The notes beneath the pieces are model-generated. The model searched no databases and was not told where the DNA came from. It saw only the letters and a program-made list of their open reading frames with translations. The translations under genes and the position numbers were made by a program. Below, in pieces: positions 1-5,991 of a stretch of DNA of 7,848 nucleotides (positions within the stretch are counted from its first letter, which is position 1; each line of letters starts with the position of its first letter). Source of the DNA: an uncultured Oscillospiraceae bacterium (GTDB lineage: Bacteria > Bacillota > Clostridia > Oscillospirales > Oscillospiraceae); contig CAKTZN010000086.1 of assembly GCA_934635545.1 (NCBI GenBank), forward strand, positions 1 through 7,848, in the 5' to 3' direction.

Positions 1-2240
1 TCCATGAAGTAGCCGAAATGGCAGGACTTCACCCGGTCGATGCGGCTGGCGGACATGGCGATGGAGTGGCCGTACAGGGAGCGCACCGCCTCGGGGGACA
101 GGCGGCCCCGCGTCATGTGCCGCGCCCGTTCCATGGCGGAGAGCGCCGGGGCGTACCGGGGACTCTGGGCGAAATAGCGCCACAGGGCCTCGTTCTCGCC
201 TGCGGCGCACAGTGCCGCGGCGGGCAGGGTCAGGCGATAGGCCCCGTCCTCCCGTTGGATCTTCGTTTGGGGGAACAGCCGGGTCAGCCGCTCCACCACG
301 AAGGAGGGCCGCAGCTCCGCGCCGGTCACGTCGGTGACGGGCCAGGAGACGTGGAGCCGCTCCGTGGGCTGGGCCAGGCAGGCGTAGATGTTCTGCAGCT
401 CGTTATCCAGGGCGTCAAAGGTGGCGTCGGACAGGGGGATATCCCGCTGTTGGAGGGCCTGGCGGTCGTCGCTGTCCAGCACGCCGCCGTCCCGGTCGAT
501 CTGGGGCAGCAGGTGGTCGTTGGCGCCCAGCAGGAACAGCACCCGCACCCGGTGGCGGTCGTTGCGAGTGATCTCGCTGACCTTTACCTGATCCAGCGTG
601 GCGGGGATGGTGCCCACGCTGTACTGGGTCAGCACCAGGCGCAGCAGCCGGGCGAACTCCTCGCCGTCCAGCTCGGCGTCCCCCAGGATCTCCACGAACT
701 GATCCAGCACATCGCAGAAGATCTGCCAGAGCTGGGCGTATTCCTCCGCCAACTGCATCTGGCCCGACGCCAGGAGCCGGTCGGCCTTGTCCCGCAGCGC
801 CTCCGGCACACCGGCGTCCGCCGCGAACTGATAGAGCGTCCGGGCCTTGTCCCGGGCGGCGGGCCGCTGCTTCAATCCCTGAGCCAGGGCCGAGAGGGGA
901 CGGCGCACCTTCTCCCGGATGCGGTTGATCTCATCCAATCGGGCGGCGCGCTGGTCGGTCATGTCCATGCCGTAGCCGTCGGGGTTCAGCGTCCAGGGGG
1001 TGTCCCGCAGCCACATGCTGCCCCGGATGTCCCAGCGGATGACGTAGTTTTCCAGCAGGTCGCACTCCGCCTCCGTGACGCCGGTCATGCCGGTCTTCAG
1101 ATAGCGGAACATATCCTCATACTCGAAGCCGCCGGTGACGGCGTCCACGGCGGACAGCAGCAGCGTCATCACGGGCTTCTCCAGAATGTCGCTGCGGCGG
1201 CTGATGTAGGCGGGGATGCCGTCACGCCGGAAGATGGACTCCAGCAGCGGCCCGTAGCTGTCCAGCGTGCGGCTGGCCACGGCCATGTCCCGGTAGCGAT
1301 AGCCCTGCTGGGCAAGGTGCCGGATCTGGGCGGAGACGTACTCCACCTCCGTATAGGCGGTGGCCGCCTGATAGAGGGCCACGGCGTCGGTGTCCCCCTC
1401 CCAGGGGGCGTCGCCGCCGAAGAAGTGGCGCTCCAGATGGCCCAGGGGGCTGTCGTCCCGGCGGGAGAGATAGGTGAGGCGGCATTCCACCCCCGCCTGG
1501 CGTGCCATGCGCACCAGCCGCTCCTTCTGGGCGGCGGCGTTCTGGAACTGACGGCCCGCCCGGTCCCCCAGCAGGGTAACGGTGACGCTGCGGCAGCGGC
1601 CCAGGGCGTGGGACAGCACGCTCTCCTCCTGTTTGTTGAAGAAGGAGAAGCCGTCCAGATACAGGTCCTTGCCGTCCAGATAGCCGGACTGGGGCAGGCT
1701 GTCGCAGAGCTTCTGCACGCGGGAGCGCATGTCGGTGCCGCCGGTGCGCAGCCGGGCGTCATAGGCGGCGAAGATCAGCGCCACGTCCCGCAGCTTGTCG
1801 CCCATGGCACCCTCCATGTCCGCCACATGGCGGTGCAGCGTCTCCGGCGCGATCTGATAGGCGTAGAATTCGTCGGCCAGGGTGGTGAGCTGGTGGAGAA
1901 AGGCCGAGCGCTGGGAGGGGCGGCCGAACACCTTCAACTGGGTGTGCAGCTCCTGTAAACAGCGGCGCATGGTCAGCAGCTTGCCGCCGTTGTCCAGCGT
2001 GACGGCGGCCAGGCCGCCGGTCTCGCCCAGTACGCGGGTGGCCAGGCTCTGGAAGGTCAGCACCTCGGCATTGCGGCTGGCGGTGGGGCCGCAGGCGCGG
2101 CACAGATCCAGCTCCGCCTCGTGGGACGTGTGTTCCGGCACCAGCAATATCTGGGGGCGGCTGTCCCGCTCCCGGTCGATGGTCTCCAGCACCTGGGCGG
2201 ATTTGCCGCTTCCCGCGCGGCCGATCCAGATGGACAGCAT
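1..2240 (-). CDS. addB: ATP-dependent helicase/deoxyribonuclease subunit B (AddB), N-terminal part, cut by window edge
   Basis: AddB pairs with AddA to unwind and resect double-strand breaks for RecA loading; it acts in the cytoplasm. The minus frame starting at 2240 stays open for 746 codons to the window edge. It opens MLSIWIGRAGSGKS, a Walker A motif at residues 7-14 at the extreme N terminus, as in AddB. Further family-like stretches are LLVPEHTSHEAE, VLTFQSLATRVL, LYLDGFSFFNKQE and VLFLLGANDHLLP. The visible part ends SRIDRVKSCHFGYFM; Cys740 there matches in context the first of the four AddB iron-sulfur cysteines. The other three and the nuclease motif would lie outside the window. The start is supported by AGGAGG eight bases upstream and a consensus promoter. 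In Firmicutes addA usually follows addB, which would place it left of the window. The family call is firm; only the C-terminal part is unseen. Confidence 0.95.
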   Translation of the reverse strand, partial: MLSIWIGRAGSGKSAQVLETIDRERDSRPQILLVPEHTSHEAELDLCRACGPTASRNAEVLTFQSLATRVLGETGGLAAVTLDNGGKLLTMRRCLQELHTQLKVFGRPSQRSAFLHQLTTLADEFYAYQIAPETLHRHVADMEGAMGDKLRDVALIFAAYDARLRTGGTDMRSRVQKLCDSLPQSGYLDGKDLYLDGFSFFNKQEESVLSHALGRCRSVTVTLLGDRAGRQFQNAAAQKERLVRMARQAGVECRLTYLSRRDDSPLGHLERHFFGGDAPWEGDTDAVALYQAATAYTEVEYVSAQIRHLAQQGYRYRDMAVASRTLDSYGPLLESIFRRDGIPAYISRRSDILEKPVMTLLLSAVDAVTGGFEYEDMFRYLKTGMTGVTEAECDLLENYVIRWDIRGSMWLRDTPWTLNPDGYGMDMTDQRAARLDEINRIREKVRRPLSALAQGLKQRPAARDKARTLYQFAADAGVPEALRDKADRLLASGQMQLAEEYAQLWQIFCDVLDQFVEILGDAELDGEEFARLLRLVLTQYSVGTIPATLDQVKVSEITRNDRHRVRVLFLLGANDHLLPQIDRDGGVLDSDDRQALQQRDIPLSDATFDALDNELQNIYACLAQPTERLHVSWPVTDVTGAELRPSFVVERLTRLFPQTKIQREDGAYRLTLPAAALCAAGENEALWRYFAQSPRYAPALSAMERARHMTRGRLSPEAVRSLYGHSIAMSASRIDRVKSCHFGYFM

Positions 2241-2424: not shown

Positions 2425-3927
2425 ATGGAAAAGAGGAAGAGACTGGCCGCGCTGCTGTGCGCGGTGATCATGGCGCTGACGCTGCTGCCGGTGCAGACCT
2501 GGGCCGCCGGGGAGGGGGCACTGTATACCGCCCGGTACGACGCCGTTACCGGCCAGATGCGCCGGGAGAGGCTGCCGGAGGGCACGGTGCTGCAGCCGTT
2601 CCCTACGGATGAGGGGAACACGGCGCTGTTCGCCGATGGCGAGGAGGATACGGAGGTCACCATTGACCCCTATTTCCTGATCATCAACGAAAATTTGCCC
2701 CGCTACGGATTTGACATGCTGTCGCAGATGGAAAACGGCGAGGCGCTGACGAACCTTTATGGCCTTCTTGCGGCGCTGGCATTTGGCTACTACTACGACA
2801 ATACCTCCAGCGACCCCGGCTACTATGGTTTCCCCGAGGGCGTCACATACAGCATGGATGAGGCGTTTATGGTGACCCAGGCGTTTTACGCCGACTGGCC
2901 GGAGATCTTCTGGATGTGGCCCGGCTGCCTCTGCATGGAGAACGAGCCGGAGGTCTGCGTCGGCCTCGACATGGGCTATAACGATCACATCGGCGATTTG
3001 GAGCGGGAGCAGCAGTTGTTCCTCTCCGCCGCAGATTCCATCCTGGCCGGTATGCCCGACGACGGTACGGACTATGAAAAGGAGCTGTATCTCCACGACG
3101 CACTGGTCAAGCACGTTACCTATAACGACGACTACGTGGAGGAGCAGAACGCCTATTCCGCGCTGGTGAACGGAGAAGCCGTCTGCGCCGGTTATGCCTT
3201 CGCCCTGCAATACCTGCTGATGCGGGCCGGGATCGAGAGCTATTATGTGGTGGGCACCGCCGGGGAGGATGAGAACGGTGATCCTGTCGGCCACGCCTGG
3301 AACATCGCCAGGATCGGCGGCGCCTGGTACTATGTGGACGCCACATGGGACGACTATGATGATGACACGCCGTACCACGCCTATTTCAACATCACCACCG
3401 CCATGCTGGAGGCGGAGCATACTCTTGATGCGCCTCCGTACAACGTGACGCTGCCGGTGTGCACCGCCACAGACGCTTTTTATTACGCTGTCAACGGCAG
3501 CATGATCTCCATGTCGGACGAGGGCCTTGTGGAGAAGATCGCGGAGCTGTTGATGGAGAACGACTGCGCGGTGTGGCTGTATGTCACAGATGACGATCCG
3601 GCTCAGGCCGCGTGGACATGGTATATAGAGAATGAGGCTGCCGTTCTCAAGGCTCTGCGGGCAACCGGTGAATGCTCGCTGGAGGCGTTGGGCAACGAAG
3701 TCCTGCTGACCTTTGCCGGTGATTTTGATCCGCCTGCGCGCGGCAACGTGAACGGCGACAATAAGCTCAGCATCAGCGATGTGCAGCTTCTGTACACCTA
3801 TCTCACCACCGGCGCCTATGAGGGCGACATGATCGCATATTATTTCCGCAGCGCCGCGGACATGAACGGCGACGGGGCGATCGACGTATACGACCTGCAG
3901 TTGCTGTACGAAACGGTCAGCGGCTGA
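2425..3927 (+). CDS. Secreted transglutaminase-like protein with C-terminal dockerin-like repeats
   Basis: Encodes 500 residues. The ATG at 2425 is chosen because AAAGGAG lies just upstream and the promoter at 2347-2375 excludes longer in-frame starts. Residues 1-27 form a signal peptide: basic MEKRKR, a hydrophobic core, then TWA-A cleavage. A transglutaminase-like (papain-fold) domain covers roughly residues 205-330 with a complete triad: Cys254 in GEAVCAGYA, His290 in GHAWN and Asp305 in YVDATWDD. After about 110 residues of unrecognised sequence, residues 440-500 carry two calcium-loop repeats. In the second (DMNGDGAIDVYD) the ligands are D479, N481, D483, D487 and D490; the first is less canonical (N441, N443, D445, S449, D452). 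This is a type I dockerin-like layout. The enzyme class is protease, transglutaminase or amidase-like, with substrate unknown. It is presumably extracellular and attached to a cohesin partner, which is not in this window. It is monocistronic, closed by the terminator at 3951. Confidence 0.9.
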   Translation: MEKRKRLAALLCAVIMALTLLPVQTWAAGEGALYTARYDAVTGQMRRERLPEGTVLQPFPTDEGNTALFADGEEDTEVTIDPYFLIINENLPRYGFDMLSQMENGEALTNLYGLLAALAFGYYYDNTSSDPGYYGFPEGVTYSMDEAFMVTQAFYADWPEIFWMWPGCLCMENEPEVCVGLDMGYNDHIGDLEREQQLFLSAADSILAGMPDDGTDYEKELYLHDALVKHVTYNDDYVEEQNAYSALVNGEAVCAGYAFALQYLLMRAGIESYYVVGTAGEDENGDPVGHAWNIARIGGAWYYVDATWDDYDDDTPYHAYFNITTAMLEAEHTLDAPPYNVTLPVCTATDAFYYAVNGSMISMSDEGLVEKIAELLMENDCAVWLYVTDDDPAQAAWTWYIENEAAVLKALRATGECSLEALGNEVLLTFAGDFDPPARGNVNGDNKLSISDVQLLYTYLTTGAYEGDMIAYYFRSAADMNGDGAIDVYDLQLLYETVSG

Positions 3928-4059: not shown

Positions 4060-5331
4060 ATGAGACAGATCCGGAGGATCCCAAAGCGGCTGGCAGCCCT
4101 GATCTGCGCGGCGGCGCTGGCCCTGGCGCTGCTGCCGGTGCAGGCCCAGGCCGCGGAGACGGCGGTCTATCCCGTGTCGGAGACGTGGGGCAACCCCCTG
4201 TACCCGTCGCTGGCGGCGGAGCGCGCCGGCAGCGGCACGGCGCTGCTGTCCGACGGCGGCATGCCCAGCTTTGACACGGCGGCCCAGGCGGCGGACTACA
4301 TCAACCGGCAGTTCAGGGCCCGGGAGAACATGGCCTTCTTCTACACCGGCTATCCGGCGGACGGCCCCTTCCTGGCGCTGACCGCCGATGAGGAGAGCGC
4401 CGCCTATGACGATGAGGAGCAGGAGCTGGTGAGCCATGGCGCGTCCCGGGCGGACATCCTGCAGCGGCGGCAGCTTATGAAGTATGTGCGCCGTCTGGTG
4501 ACGGAGGAGCTGCTGCCGGAGGTCTTCCGCTATGTGCCCGGCGACCCCACCGGCGGCGACTATATGCGCACCCAGTACCGGGACGTGACCTGCTCCGCCG
4601 CCTATGACGGCGGCATCCTGGGCGTGTCCGTCACCTTTACCTATTTCACCACGGCGGCCCAGGAGGCCGAGACCGACAAGGCGGCGGCAGAGCTGCTGGA
4701 CTATCTCCGGCTTGACGGCATGACCGGCTACGACCGGCTGACGGCCATCTACGACTGGATCTGCGCCCATGTGGCCTTTGACTACGCCCACCAGAAGGAC
4801 GAGACGTATCTGGCCCAGTACACCGCCTATGGCGCGCTGGTGGACAAGGCCGCCGTGGGGCAGGGCTATGCCGCGCTGCTGTACCGTCTGGCGCTGGCGG
4901 CGGGGCTGGACGCCCGGATCGTCACCGGCACCGCACGGGGCGCGGCCCACCACTGGTGCCTGCTGCGCATGGGGGAGCGCTGGTACTACGCCGACGCCGC
5001 CTGGGACGCGGGCTCTCAGGCCCGGACGTACTTCCTGCGGCCTGCGCTGACGTACCATGTGCCGGACGACGCGTCCCTGGCCATGGCGGCCCAGTATCCC
5101 CTGGCCGACAGCGCCTATCTGCTGACGCCGGGGGACGTGAACGGTGACGGCTTCGTGAACATCCAGGATGTGCAGGCGCTGTACGCGTATCTGACCCTTG
5201 ACCGGCGGCCCACCGGCAGCGGCGCCCTGTCGGCGGCGGACTTCCGCTCGGCAGCGGATGTGAACAACGACGGCGCCGCCGATGTGTACGACCTGCAGAG
5301 GCTGTATGAGATGGTCACCGGCCTGGGATGA
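4060..5331 (+). CDS. Secreted transglutaminase-like pseudoenzyme with C-terminal dockerin-like repeats
   Basis: Encodes 423 residues and is a paralogue of the upstream gene. The ATG at 4060 follows AAAGGAGG by eight bases; an ATG at 4021 lies before the expected transcript start. A signal peptide spans residues 1-31 (RRIPKR, hydrophobic core, AQA-A cleavage), with the LLPVQ segment shared with the paralogue. The transglutaminase-like domain is recognisable around residues 225-330, but the expected catalytic Cys is Gly267 (AVGQGYA against AVCAGYA in the paralogue). His297 (AHHW) and Asp312 (YADAAWD) remain. The domain leads almost directly into dockerin-like repeats at 358-423. Loop 1 is DVNGDGFVNIQD from D359 and loop 2 is DVNNDGAADVYD from D400. 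The long spacer before the dockerin of the paralogue is missing. With no nucleophile, a binding or structural role is more likely than catalysis. No intrinsic terminator with a T-run follows. Confidence 0.88.
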   Translation: MRQIRRIPKRLAALICAAALALALLPVQAQAAETAVYPVSETWGNPLYPSLAAERAGSGTALLSDGGMPSFDTAAQAADYINRQFRARENMAFFYTGYPADGPFLALTADEESAAYDDEEQELVSHGASRADILQRRQLMKYVRRLVTEELLPEVFRYVPGDPTGGDYMRTQYRDVTCSAAYDGGILGVSVTFTYFTTAAQEAETDKAAAELLDYLRLDGMTGYDRLTAIYDWICAHVAFDYAHQKDETYLAQYTAYGALVDKAAVGQGYAALLYRLALAAGLDARIVTGTARGAAHHWCLLRMGERWYYADAAWDAGSQARTYFLRPALTYHVPDDASLAMAAQYPLADSAYLLTPGDVNGDGFVNIQDVQALYAYLTLDRRPTGSGALSAADFRSAADVNNDGAADVYDLQRLYEMVTGLG

Positions 5332-5359: not shown

Positions 5360-5438
5360 GTAGGGGCGGACGACTCTGTCGGCCCTGACGATGGCCGCAG
5401 CATTTCCGATAGGGGCGGACAGGGTCGTCCGCCCCTAC
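5360..5438. repeat. GC-rich palindromic repeat element (REP/MITE-like)
   Basis: GTAGGGGCGGACGAC (5360-5374) is the exact reverse complement of 5424-5438. A second direct copy of the core, TAGGGGCGGAC (5410-5420), forms an 11 bp perfect hairpin with 5427-5437 around a 6 nt loop. The RNA could therefore fold in two mutually exclusive ways. There is no coding potential and no T-run, so it is not a standard terminator, though it could protect or end the upstream mRNA. It resembles dispersed intergenic palindromes, but copy number elsewhere cannot be seen here. Confidence 0.7.
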
Positions 5439-5493: not shown

Positions 5494-5521
5494 TTGACAA
5501 TCCACGCAAAATGGGTATAAT
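5494..5521 (+). promoter_or_regulatory. Near-consensus sigmaA promoter firing toward the small antisense ORF
   Basis: A perfect TTGACA (5494-5499) and a perfect TATAAT (5516-5521) are separated by 16 nt. Transcription would start near 5528. No credible plus-strand gene follows before the hairpin at 5589-5618, so the product should be a short RNA. Confidence 0.8.
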
Positions 5522-5527
5522 AAAAGC

Positions 5528-5620
5528 AGGGGTATTACCGCAGAGCGGTTTAGCCCGGTCGAAAATTGAAGATTTTAGGAATTATCCGAAAACCGTCACT
5601 TGGCCGAGTGGCGGTTTTCC
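5528..5620 (+). ncRNA. Predicted short antisense RNA (candidate type I antitoxin)
   Basis: A product of roughly 90 nt is inferred between the near-consensus promoter at 5494-5521 and the hairpin at 5589-5618, which ends in TTTT. It holds no ORF with a ribosome site. Small internal stems are possible: ACCGC-AGA-GCGGT (5537-5549) and AAAAT with ATTTT (near 5562-5576). Its 3' end is complementary to the last codons, stop and terminator of the minus-strand small ORF, so it could base-pair with that mRNA. Ends are predicted, not measured. Confidence 0.5.
5589..5618. terminator. Bidirectional terminator hairpin shared by the antisense RNA and the small ORF
   Basis: AAAACCG (5589-5595) pairs with CGGTTTT (5612-5618) and CACT with AGTG; two T-G wobbles join the stem around a GGCC loop. 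Both strands show an A-run before and a four-T run after the stem. On the minus strand the TGA stop of the small ORF (5598-5596) lies in the second arm. The T-runs are short, so some read-through is possible in either direction. Confidence 0.75.
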
Positions 5621-5679
5621 CATTTTATCCGCAGTGTGAACACAAGTCCAAACAGATGGAATGTAATGGTAATAGGCAC
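5596..5679 (-). CDS. 27-residue hydrophobic peptide, candidate type I toxin
   Basis: The frame starts at GTG 5679 and ends with TGA at 5598-5596. The start is set by AAGGAGGTGAT (5693-5683), a full-length match to the 16S anti-SD, with AGGAGG seven bases from the GTG. An upstream in-frame ATG at 5778 lies before the predicted transcript start and is excluded. The peptide has a hydrophobic, strand-like segment (ITITFHLFGLVFTLRI, residues 3-18), then a polar basic tail (KWENRHSAK). Length and layout fit type I toxin or small membrane peptides, but the hydrophobic run is short for a transmembrane helix. From memory, unnamed gut-Firmicute peptides with a similar RHSAK ending exist; this could not be checked. 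It could instead be a leader peptide. Function is unproven. Confidence 0.6.
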   Translation of the reverse strand: MPITITFHLFGLVFTLRIKWENRHSAK

Positions 5680-5682
5680 GAT

Positions 5683-5704
5683 ATCACCTCCTTCCGGAGG
5701 AGAT
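5683..5704 (-). promoter_or_regulatory. Hairpin sequestering the Shine-Dalgarno of the small ORF
   Basis: In the minus-strand RNA, AUC-U-CCUCC pairs with GGAGG-U-GAU around a GGAA tetraloop: eight pairs with one U-U mismatch. The whole GGAGGUGAU ribosome site is inside the stem, three bases before the GUG. It would repress translation until refolding, processing or ribosome stand-by binding, as described for several type I toxin mRNAs. Confidence 0.65.
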
Positions 5705-5744
5705 CCGGGCCAACCGCCCCGCAATGTTATGTAATACCCTTGCC

Positions 5745-5760
5745 CAAGGCCAAAGCCTTG
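5745..5760 (-). other. 5' end hairpin of the small-ORF transcript
   Basis: CAAGGC and GCCTTG form a 6 bp stem around a 4 nt loop. It lies only a base or two after the predicted transcript start near 5762, so it would form at the extreme 5' end, where such stems usually stabilise RNAs. The leader between start and GTG is about 80 nt, long for so small an ORF. Confidence 0.5.
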
Positions 5761-5768
5761 TACGAACA

Positions 5769-5797
5769 ATCGTAGCATAGTCGCGGGGTTTTGTCAA
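5769..5797 (-). promoter_or_regulatory. Promoter of the small ORF
   Basis: On the minus strand a perfect TTGACA (5797-5792), a 17 nt spacer and TACGAT (5774-5769), with TG one base before the -10 (extended -10). The start would be near 5762. From here to 5918 on the plus strand nothing else is recognisable; the stretch is AT-rich non-coding DNA. Confidence 0.7.
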
Positions 5798-5918
5798 CGG
5801 AAACCGGCGGTATCCTCTCCGTACTTCTGCCTGGCGACAACTGTCCACACGACATTCGGCAAAATCAACAAACGGCAAACAAAAAACTGTCATAACCAAC
5901 GAAAATCAAAAAACCACA

Positions 5919-5963: not shown

Positions 5964-5991
5964 TGAAAACGTTTCCGGAAACGGTACCGTT
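5964..5991 (+). promoter_or_regulatory. Overlapping palindromic operators, LacI/CcpA type
   Basis: Three sites overlap. TGAAAACGTTTCCG (5964-5977) matches the cre consensus TGWAANCGNTNWCA at 12 of 14 positions. CGTTTCCGGAAACG (5970-5983) and AACGGTACCGTT (5980-5991) are perfect palindromes. They begin about 10 nt after the predicted transcript start, so a bound LacI-family dimer would block elongation. Autoregulation by the gene at 6027 and catabolite control are both possible. Confidence 0.7.

What the first reader, a model, noticed from the sequence alone, without database searches (positions are those of the whole stretch)
5494..5797. Compact convergent locus resembling a new type I toxin-antitoxin system
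Within about 300 bp two strong promoters face each other (TTGACA-16-TATAAT on plus, TTGACA-17-TG-n-TACGAT on minus). The minus transcript carries only a 27-codon hydrophobic, basic-tailed peptide with a perfect ribosome site. The plus transcript would be a short non-coding RNA overlapping the 3' end of that mRNA. Both end in one shared bidirectional hairpin. This geometry (3' overlap, small hydrophobic peptide) is like txpA/ratA in Bacillus, but the peptide does not match a toxin family I recognise. Promoters and hairpins are seen; the toxin role is inference.
Basis: partly seen in the sequence, partly recalled or inferred. Interest (0 to 1): 0.8.

Follow-up and report, generated by a model that had tools for sequence, protein, structure and literature searches.

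The report
Mirrored RNA pair guarding beta-hairpin peptide
A 300-base stretch of this bacterial genome is one copy of a recurring pair of facing genes: one encodes a conserved 27-residue peptide that is likely a self-poison and is predicted to fold as a beta-hairpin, and the other would make a short RNA that likely keeps the peptide silent, a predicted control design that recurs beside unrelated peptides in related genomes.

Summary
In detail: two facing consensus promoters, a 27-codon frame with a strong ribosome site, one shared hairpin. The peptide belongs to a family, without a match in Pfam or NCBIfam, found in 59 of 250 genomes of one Oscillospiraceae-type family (up to 11 matches each), in viral contigs and a Vescimonas fastidiosa replicon, and thinly in Gemmiger's (6 of 148) and Butyrivibrio's (7 of 150) families. 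Toxicity and repression are untested; the role of the mirrored domain is unresolved.

The parts
5769..5797 (-). promoter of the peptide (likely toxin) mRNA: TTGACA, 17 nt, TACGAT with TG before the -10
   Evidence: family: 77 of 114 loci have one of at least 10/12 here, 14 of 114 on the other strand
5705..5743 (-). 5' domain of the peptide mRNA, same-sense copy of the antitoxin 5' domain (GCAAGGGTATTAC...GGGCGGTTGGCCCGG)
   Evidence: inverted repeat I3 5526-5538/5731-5743, 92%; own-locus likeness above the median of other loci in 74 of 74
5687..5700 (-). small hairpin CCTCC-GGAA-GGAGG that takes up the ribosome-binding site
   Evidence: fold; family alignment A3, 85.7% of cells paired against 50-70% when slid
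5596..5679 (-). 27-codon peptide gene (GTG start), predicted beta-hairpin, likely toxin
   Evidence: purifying selection in two peptide groups; beta-hairpin model; periodicity
5588..5619 (.). shared hairpin, terminator-like on the plus strand; on the minus strand its 5' arm encodes NRHS and its 3' arm holds the TGA stop
   Evidence: covarying stem (antitoxin strand)
5494..5521 (+). promoter of the predicted antitoxin RNA: TTGACA, 16 nt, TATAAT (12/12)
   Evidence: conserved in 110 of 115 loci at 10/12 or better
5527..5633 (+). predicted antitoxin RNA (ends not mapped)
   Evidence: covariance model R1 from 40 such RNAs
5526..5558 (+). 5' domain of the antitoxin RNA (hairpin H1), mirrored in the peptide mRNA

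Best explanation
This is a compact pair of convergent genes of a recurring family, in which a conserved 27-residue peptide, likely a toxin to its own cell, is likely held silent by a short RNA that would be made from the facing promoter: a predicted type I toxin-antitoxin pair. Shown by sequence and comparison: the peptide frame is selected, the facing promoter and the shared hairpin are conserved, the ribosome site sits in a small predicted hairpin, and both RNAs would start with the same locus-specific 5' domain. Inferred: the antitoxin RNA, from the better promoter, pairs with the peptide mRNA at the complementary terminator hairpins (as in Fst/par) and leads to block or decay of the mRNA; if the antitoxin runs out, the peptide is made and, as a cationic amphipathic beta-hairpin, most likely damages or depolarises the membrane. 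The chassis is modular: the same antitoxin-type RNA and 5' domain are found beside two other classes of small peptide, both membrane helices by hydropathy. The mirrored 5' domain probably takes part in recognition between the two RNAs, but no pairing scheme was confirmed.
For: Peptide family in 59 of 250 genomes with omega-like ratios 0.121 (43 distinct sequences, 222 pairs) and 0.064 (44 distinct, 660 pairs), while the shifted frames give 1.4 to 10.6. Opposing promoter of at least 10/12 in 110 of 115 loci, 1.4% in shuffles, 18 of 115 on the wrong strand; its -10 lies 62-84 nt from the stop in 106 of 113 loci. Antitoxin RNA structure: 93.9% of cells paired, 36 cells changed on both sides against 8.9 in shuffles and at most 7 when slid. 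Same chassis with membrane-helix peptides in 20 of 36 RNA-model matches examined that lack a whole beta-class peptide, with the mirrored 5' domain again (20 loci, p 0.0002). Loss pattern, by hand comparison: in 101 genomes 43 of 46 peptide frames have an antitoxin match beside them, while 4 of 46 antitoxin matches of 50 bits or more have no whole toxin. Fst/par works with this geometry (PMC7472228 passages).
Against: No transcript, toxicity or repression was shown. Four family peptides scanned match no Pfam or NCBIfam family and only one has a weak PHROG hit, E 0.021. Type I toxins are generally membrane helices (PMC12390103 passage), which this one is not. Two of 115 loci (L156, L190) have a whole peptide frame but neither the 3' arm of the terminator nor an antitoxin promoter, so the toxin can persist alone or these copies are inactive. 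Apart from the terminator, no locus-specific complementarity between the RNAs was found (best of nine, other than the positive control, p 0.038, uncorrected). On the peptide strand of the window the terminator is not recognised by the scan.
Confidence: 0.75

Rival explanations
1. The pair is an RNA-regulated small peptide with a useful, non-toxic role (for example a stress or phage-exclusion factor), and the facing RNA merely tunes its dose.
For: Peptide is unlike known type I toxins; the families shown for 50 flanking proteins are mostly housekeeping ones (25 of 54 families shown); purifying selection; two loci keep the peptide without the antitoxin.
Against: The same chassis carries membrane-helix peptides; antitoxin-type RNAs without a whole toxin are seen more often; some copies lie in viral contigs near integrase, antirepressor or virion genes.
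Confidence: 0.15
2. A dispersed selfish repeat (MITE-like), spread because of its inverted ends, whose peptide is incidental.
For: Up to 11 matches per genome, tandem pairs about 300-350 bp apart; ends are inverted repeats; by my reading of the hit ranges, homology between copies stops near the two promoters.
Against: Peptide codons are selected in frame; promoter spacers and the 25 nt outside the -35 boxes are not significantly shared between the two arms (p 0.09 and 0.13). Transposases and target-site duplications were not searched for; one look for an empty site was inconclusive.
Confidence: 0.06
3. The mirrored 5' domains are kept alike only by gene conversion or template switching between inverted repeats and have no role in RNA recognition (this bears on the mechanism, not on the toxin-antitoxin reading).
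For: Cross-pairing energies are not clearly locus-specific (p 0.15 for both arms), although leader and antitoxin are alike at p 0.0002.
Against: The likeness is not significant in the promoter spacers or beyond and, by eye, the loops between the arms differ in length and sequence while the arms agree; it recurs with three peptide classes.
Confidence: 0.4
4. Chance promoters and a meaningless short frame.
For: Short frames are common; the window lists 74 frames of 25 aa or more.
Against: Conservation across 117 complete loci and codon selection.
Confidence: 0.01

Closest known systems
Fst/par (parpAD1 of Enterococcus and the Fst family)
   Same: Convergent promoters; small peptide mRNA and short RNA sharing one terminator; ribosome site in a stem-loop; repeats in the 5' parts of both RNAs; copies on chromosomes and mobile elements (features of par from PMC7472228 passages).
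   Different: Repeats are inverted, so both RNAs carry the same sequence in the same sense, whereas DRa/DRb are direct repeats that make the RNAs complementary; peptide is a predicted beta-hairpin without the membrane helix; the terminator is part of the coding frame.
txpA/ratA and related Bacillus type I systems
   Different: B. subtilis type I toxins share a transmembrane domain (PMC6563280 passages); no family match here; a shared terminator and mirrored 5' domains are not recalled for txpA/ratA.
Type I systems of Clostridioides difficile (CD0956.2-RCd10 and others)
   Same: Clostridia, small peptides with antisense RNAs, prophage links (PMC6563280 passages).
   Different: Their toxins are 34-59 aa with a transmembrane domain and charged C-terminus; none of the passages seen describes this geometry or peptide.
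SymE and RalR (cytosolic type I toxins)
   Same: Exceptions to the membrane-helix rule (PMC12390103 passage).
   Different: Named there as cytosolic nucleic-acid-cleaving proteins; much larger than 27 residues (size recalled).

Membership tests
type I toxin-antitoxin (general) | small peptide gene under selection | tested here: met
   omega-like 0.064-0.121, shifted frames 1.4-10.6
type I toxin-antitoxin (general) | RNA from the opposite strand, overlapping the toxin mRNA, with its own promoter | tested here: inconclusive
   promoter and structure conserved; transcription itself not shown
type I toxin-antitoxin (general) | peptide is toxic when expressed | not testable with these tools
   needs expression in a laboratory strain
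type I toxin-antitoxin (general) | antitoxin acts as RNA and silences the toxin | not testable with these tools
   antitoxins without toxin are indirect support; L156 and L190 count against
Fst/par | convergent promoters and shared bidirectional terminator | tested here: met
   terminator on the peptide strand not listed by the scan in the window
Fst/par | stem-loop that sequesters the Shine-Dalgarno sequence | tested here: met
   (85.7% of cells paired; one of five pairs changes on both sides, no more than in shuffles; fold_alignment predicted no structure)
Fst/par | direct repeats DRa/DRb giving antisense complementarity in both 5' parts | tested here: not met
   repeats are inverted; reverse-complement likeness 13.4 is below the reversed control 15.5
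Fst/par | toxin with membrane helix, conserved tryptophan and charged C-terminus | tested here: not met
   beta-hairpin model and hydropathy; no family match
txpA/ratA | TxpA-like membrane-helix toxin | tested here: not met
txpA/ratA | convergent genes overlapping at their 3' ends | tested here: met
   (by sequence; RNA ends not mapped)
Hol_Tox-type peptides (for the other classes on the same chassis) | Pfam or NCBIfam match | tested here: not met
   no match above cut-off for the 11 membrane-helix peptides scanned; the likeness is recalled only

The most novel reading that the evidence does not exclude
A modular superfamily of type I toxin-antitoxin systems in gut Bacillota in which one RNA chassis controls interchangeable, unrelated peptide toxins, one class being the first beta-hairpin type I toxin, and in which the antitoxin recognises its own mRNA through a mirrored same-sense 5' domain (hairpin arm exchange) instead of an antisense stretch there.
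Probability: 0.3. Interest if true: 0.9.

Novelty: new variant of a known kind. Interest (0 to 1): 0.78.

Why it matters
If true, a large group of gut-associated bacteria carries many copies of an overlooked toxin-antitoxin design: the four whole copies on the V. fastidiosa replicon have no listed gene over them (that gene table is incomplete by the collection's own note). It would add a beta-sheet peptide to a toxin class made almost wholly of membrane helices, show that a type I antitoxin RNA can be kept while the toxin is exchanged, and give an RNA pair that shares sequence in the same sense, which makes a clear question for RNA recognition: how does each antitoxin know its own mRNA when a genome holds many copies?

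Tried and rejected
Exact long terminator pattern in viral contigs: 0 matches; a looser one found 10 contigs, three of them sharing one identical copy. Synteny beside lacI: none of 80 loci with a relative of the window's LacI carries the peptide; homology to the two closest starts at 5882, right of the locus, and their genomes show no peptide match at E 0.1. Rfam: no match near the locus up to E 5. RNAalifold on A2 and A3 predicted no structure; A2 held 79 of 93 and A3 77 of 90 candidate rows, dropped by me as odd or misaligned; A7 held 40 of 103 diverse antitoxin RNAs, and its structure was set by me from these sequences, which favours it over the slid controls. Pairing of the antitoxin 5' domain with leader, coding part, terminator or ribosome-site hairpin is not locus-specific (lowest of the other tests p 0.06, leader domain with the antitoxin middle). 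Pairing of the GCGGUU motif with the AACCGC arm of the terminator was dropped by eye because variants do not follow. The idea that the C-A mismatch in the peptide strand's hairpin is forced by the TGA stop is not settled: of five rows whose frame ends earlier, two have lost it, two keep it, one is altered. A look for an empty insertion site found only copy-number change. Papers: no title or abstract listed in searches names this family (open-licence PubMed Central only); for three papers I saw passages (PMC7472228, PMC6563280, PMC12390103), for the rest the listing.

Full report
1. The observation. The plus promoter matches 12 of 12 positions, the minus one 10 of 12 with a TG before the -10; shuffles of the window give 1.6 such sites against 12 found on both strands. 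The scan lists the hairpin as terminator-like on the plus strand only. Segments of both RNAs fold better than shuffles (z -2.8 each). The peptide's last codons and its stop codon are part of the hairpin.

2. It is a family. No whole genome is held for the window. Relatives of the neighbouring LacI gave 80 loci, none with the peptide. Searching the DNA of the locus in 11 of the genomes so reached showed several copies in one of them, G010, whose contig L010 is titled uncultured Oscillibacter. The terminator pattern is in 13 of 101 genomes of that genome's family, and in 0 of 101 when read backwards, and in 10 viral contigs. A profile of 19 peptides (A1) matches 59 of 250 genomes of the family at E 0.01 or better, with up to 11 matches in one, and tandem pairs about 300-350 bp apart. 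A wider profile (A5, 25 rows) matches 6 of 148 genomes of the family of Gemmiger formicilis, 7 of 150 of the family of Butyrivibrio fibrisolvens, and 2 of 391 of a class-wide draw; of the last two, one is G010 itself and the other a short tail match. That these families are Ruminococcaceae and Lachnospiraceae is recalled. Most new loci from them show the same anatomy. The replicon pMM35_01 of Vescimonas fastidiosa carries six matches, four with a whole frame; no listed gene covers those four. Four family peptides, the window's among them, match nothing in Pfam or NCBIfam and one has a weak PHROG hit.

3. Selection and promoters. From 132 rows I kept 117 with a start codon and 18-40 residues. 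In the peptide core of 91 of these (terminator codons left out) changes are mostly synonymous: omega-like 0.121 (43 distinct of 46, 222 pairs) and 0.064 (44 distinct of 45, 660 pairs), against 1.4 to 10.6 in shifted frames. The pairs are not independent. The facing promoter scores at least 10 of 12 in 110 of 115 loci with enough sequence, against 18 of 115 on the other strand and 1.4% in shuffles; the -10 lies 62-84 nt from the stop in 106 of the 113 scored at 9 or more. The peptide promoter reaches 10 in 77 of 114 (control 14 of 114). At 11 or more it is 101 of 115 against 54 of 114, so the antitoxin promoter is the closer to consensus. Of the five that miss, three have 9 of 12, and two (L156, L190) have a peptide frame but neither terminator 3' arm nor promoter.

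4. RNA structure. In 40 antitoxin RNAs a 5' hairpin of nine pairs and a terminator of thirteen pairs hold 93.9% of cells (86.7% and 98.8%); 36 cells are changed on both sides (shuffles 8.9, slides at most 7). One terminator pair is U-G in 40 of 40, hence a C-A mismatch in the peptide mRNA, where the A belongs to the TGA stop codon; members whose stop lies earlier do not settle whether the stop forces it. The ribosome site sits in a small hairpin, often with a GAAA or GGAA loop: 85.7% of cells pair against 50-70% when slid, one pair is U-A instead of C-G in 20 of 77 sequences, but the number of covarying pairs is no higher than in shuffles, and RNAalifold predicted nothing on the raw alignment.

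5. The mirrored 5' domain. In DNA the two ends of the locus are inverted repeats, so both RNAs begin with a like sequence in the same sense. In 74 loci with both promoters, the likeness of leader and own antitoxin is 30.2 against 18.8 with other loci, and own exceeds the median of others in 74 of 74; in 35 mutually distant loci, the window among them, permutation gives p 0.0002. It is not antisense: the reverse complement scores 13.4, below the reversed control of 15.5. Promoter spacers (p 0.09) and the 25 nt outside the -35 (p 0.13) are not significantly shared. Each locus thus has its own version of the domain, kept alike in both RNAs. I tested whether this serves pairing. The antitoxin's own hairpin is recovered as a positive control (p 0.003; 0.001), but cross-pairing of arms is not clearly locus-specific (p 0.15 and 0.15; 0.12 and 0.038, uncorrected among nine tests), and no other partner was found. 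The function of the mirror is open; arm exchange and template switching are both possible.

6. The peptide is not a typical membrane helix. Of 107 distinct family peptides, 106 have a larger hydrophobic moment at the beta angle than at the helix angle, 0 reach the 1.6 hydropathy cut-off, and the net charge is +3 to +7. AlphaFold2 on the window's frame (31 residues with four leader codons, eight relatives aligned) gives two strands, 4-13 and 16-25, with mean pLDDT 78.9, 93 in residues 11-20, and pTM 0.33. For so short a chain this is a hint, not proof. A cationic amphipathic beta-hairpin would suit membrane damage, but this is inference. A passage in PMC12390103 states that type I toxins are generally peptides with a membrane alpha-helix, SymE and RalR being the two exceptions.

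7. The chassis is modular. A covariance model of the antitoxin RNA (R1, built from 40 RNAs that match by construction) matches 28 of 101 genomes at E 1e-4 or better. By my count 46 matches have 50 bits or more: 41 lie beside a beta-class peptide found, four lack a whole toxin (L081, L377, L378, L380) and one has another peptide (L379). I then examined 36 fetched matches without a whole beta-class peptide, weak ones included: 14 carry a membrane-helix peptide ending in lysines or lysine and arginine, 6 a second helix class ending in KAC, KAR or NAC, 13 have antitoxin features but no whole frame that I could recognise (one of them cut by a contig end before the promoter), and 3 have neither promoter nor 5' domain (L389, L399, L406). 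The 20 with other peptides use different terminators but the same 5' domain, again mirrored in the leader (own 28.95, all 22.51, p 0.0002, 18 of 20 above the median; L393 and L401 align poorly). Eleven peptides of these two classes were scanned; Pfam and NCBIfam do not name them, and their likeness to holin-like type I toxins is recalled. Conversely, of 46 beta-class frames in those 101 genomes (after leaving out a truncated frame, a tail only and a likely chance hit), 43 have an R1 match beside them; of the other three, one has the promoter (L259), one runs out of contig (L257) and one was not fetched.

8. Reading. The parts, their conservation and above all the shared chassis make a type I toxin-antitoxin pair the best reading (0.75). 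In anatomy it stands closest to Fst/par, where RNAs meet first at the terminator loops and a stem-loop hides the ribosome site (PMC7472228 passages). It fails two defining features of that family, the direct repeats and the membrane-helix toxin, so it is not filed there. Some copies sit in viral contigs within about 1.5 kb of an integrase (L116), an antirepressor (L119) or a virion protein (L111), while among 50 proteins flanking other copies the 25 families shown, of 54, are mostly housekeeping.

9. Limits. All is sequence comparison. Genomes are given without names or completeness, and many are metagenome assemblies by the titles of the contigs that led to them. Loci are related, so counts of loci are not counts of events. 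Paper searches covered open-licence PubMed Central only.

Noticed in passing
window 2425-3924 and 4060-5328, + strand: Two neighbouring genes, each with a transglutaminase-like core and a type I dockerin, just left of the locus; both begin with a signal-like stretch by eye.
   Followed up: partly
window 3-2240, - strand: Part of an AddB-type helicase-exonuclease subunit (TIGR02773, 480.7 bits against a whole-protein cut-off of 903.7; the gene runs off the window).
   Followed up: partly
window 5410-5437: Short GC-rich palindromic repeat TAGGGGCGGAC...GTCCGCCCCTA left of the antitoxin promoter; the related 14-mer TAGGGGCGGACGAC occurs in 2 of 412 fetched loci, perhaps a REP-like repeat.
   Followed up: partly
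window 5969-5985: Palindrome ACGTTTCCGGAAACGGT between a promoter-like site and the start of the lacI-family gene, looking like its own operator.
   Followed up: no
L081 (G010), L377, L378, L380, L386, L412: Antitoxin-type RNAs with terminator but no whole toxin frame: possible solo antitoxins.
   Followed up: partly
L156 (G146) and L190 (G268): Whole peptide frames that have lost the terminator 3' arm and the antitoxin promoter: possible solo toxins or dead copies.
   Followed up: partly
L379, L385, L388, L390, L403, L408: A second class of short membrane-helix peptide (ending KAC, KAR or NAC) on the same RNA chassis; the four of these scanned have no family match above cut-off.
   Followed up: partly
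L138 2989-3562 (V. fastidiosa) against L329 1878-2131: Two tandem copies beside nadE and a lysR-type gene where a relative has one: change in copy number.
   Followed up: partly
family-wide, e.g. window 5596-5619: The stop codon lies in the 3' arm of the terminator, so a ribosome at the stop would cover the hairpin; translation might change termination.
   Followed up: no
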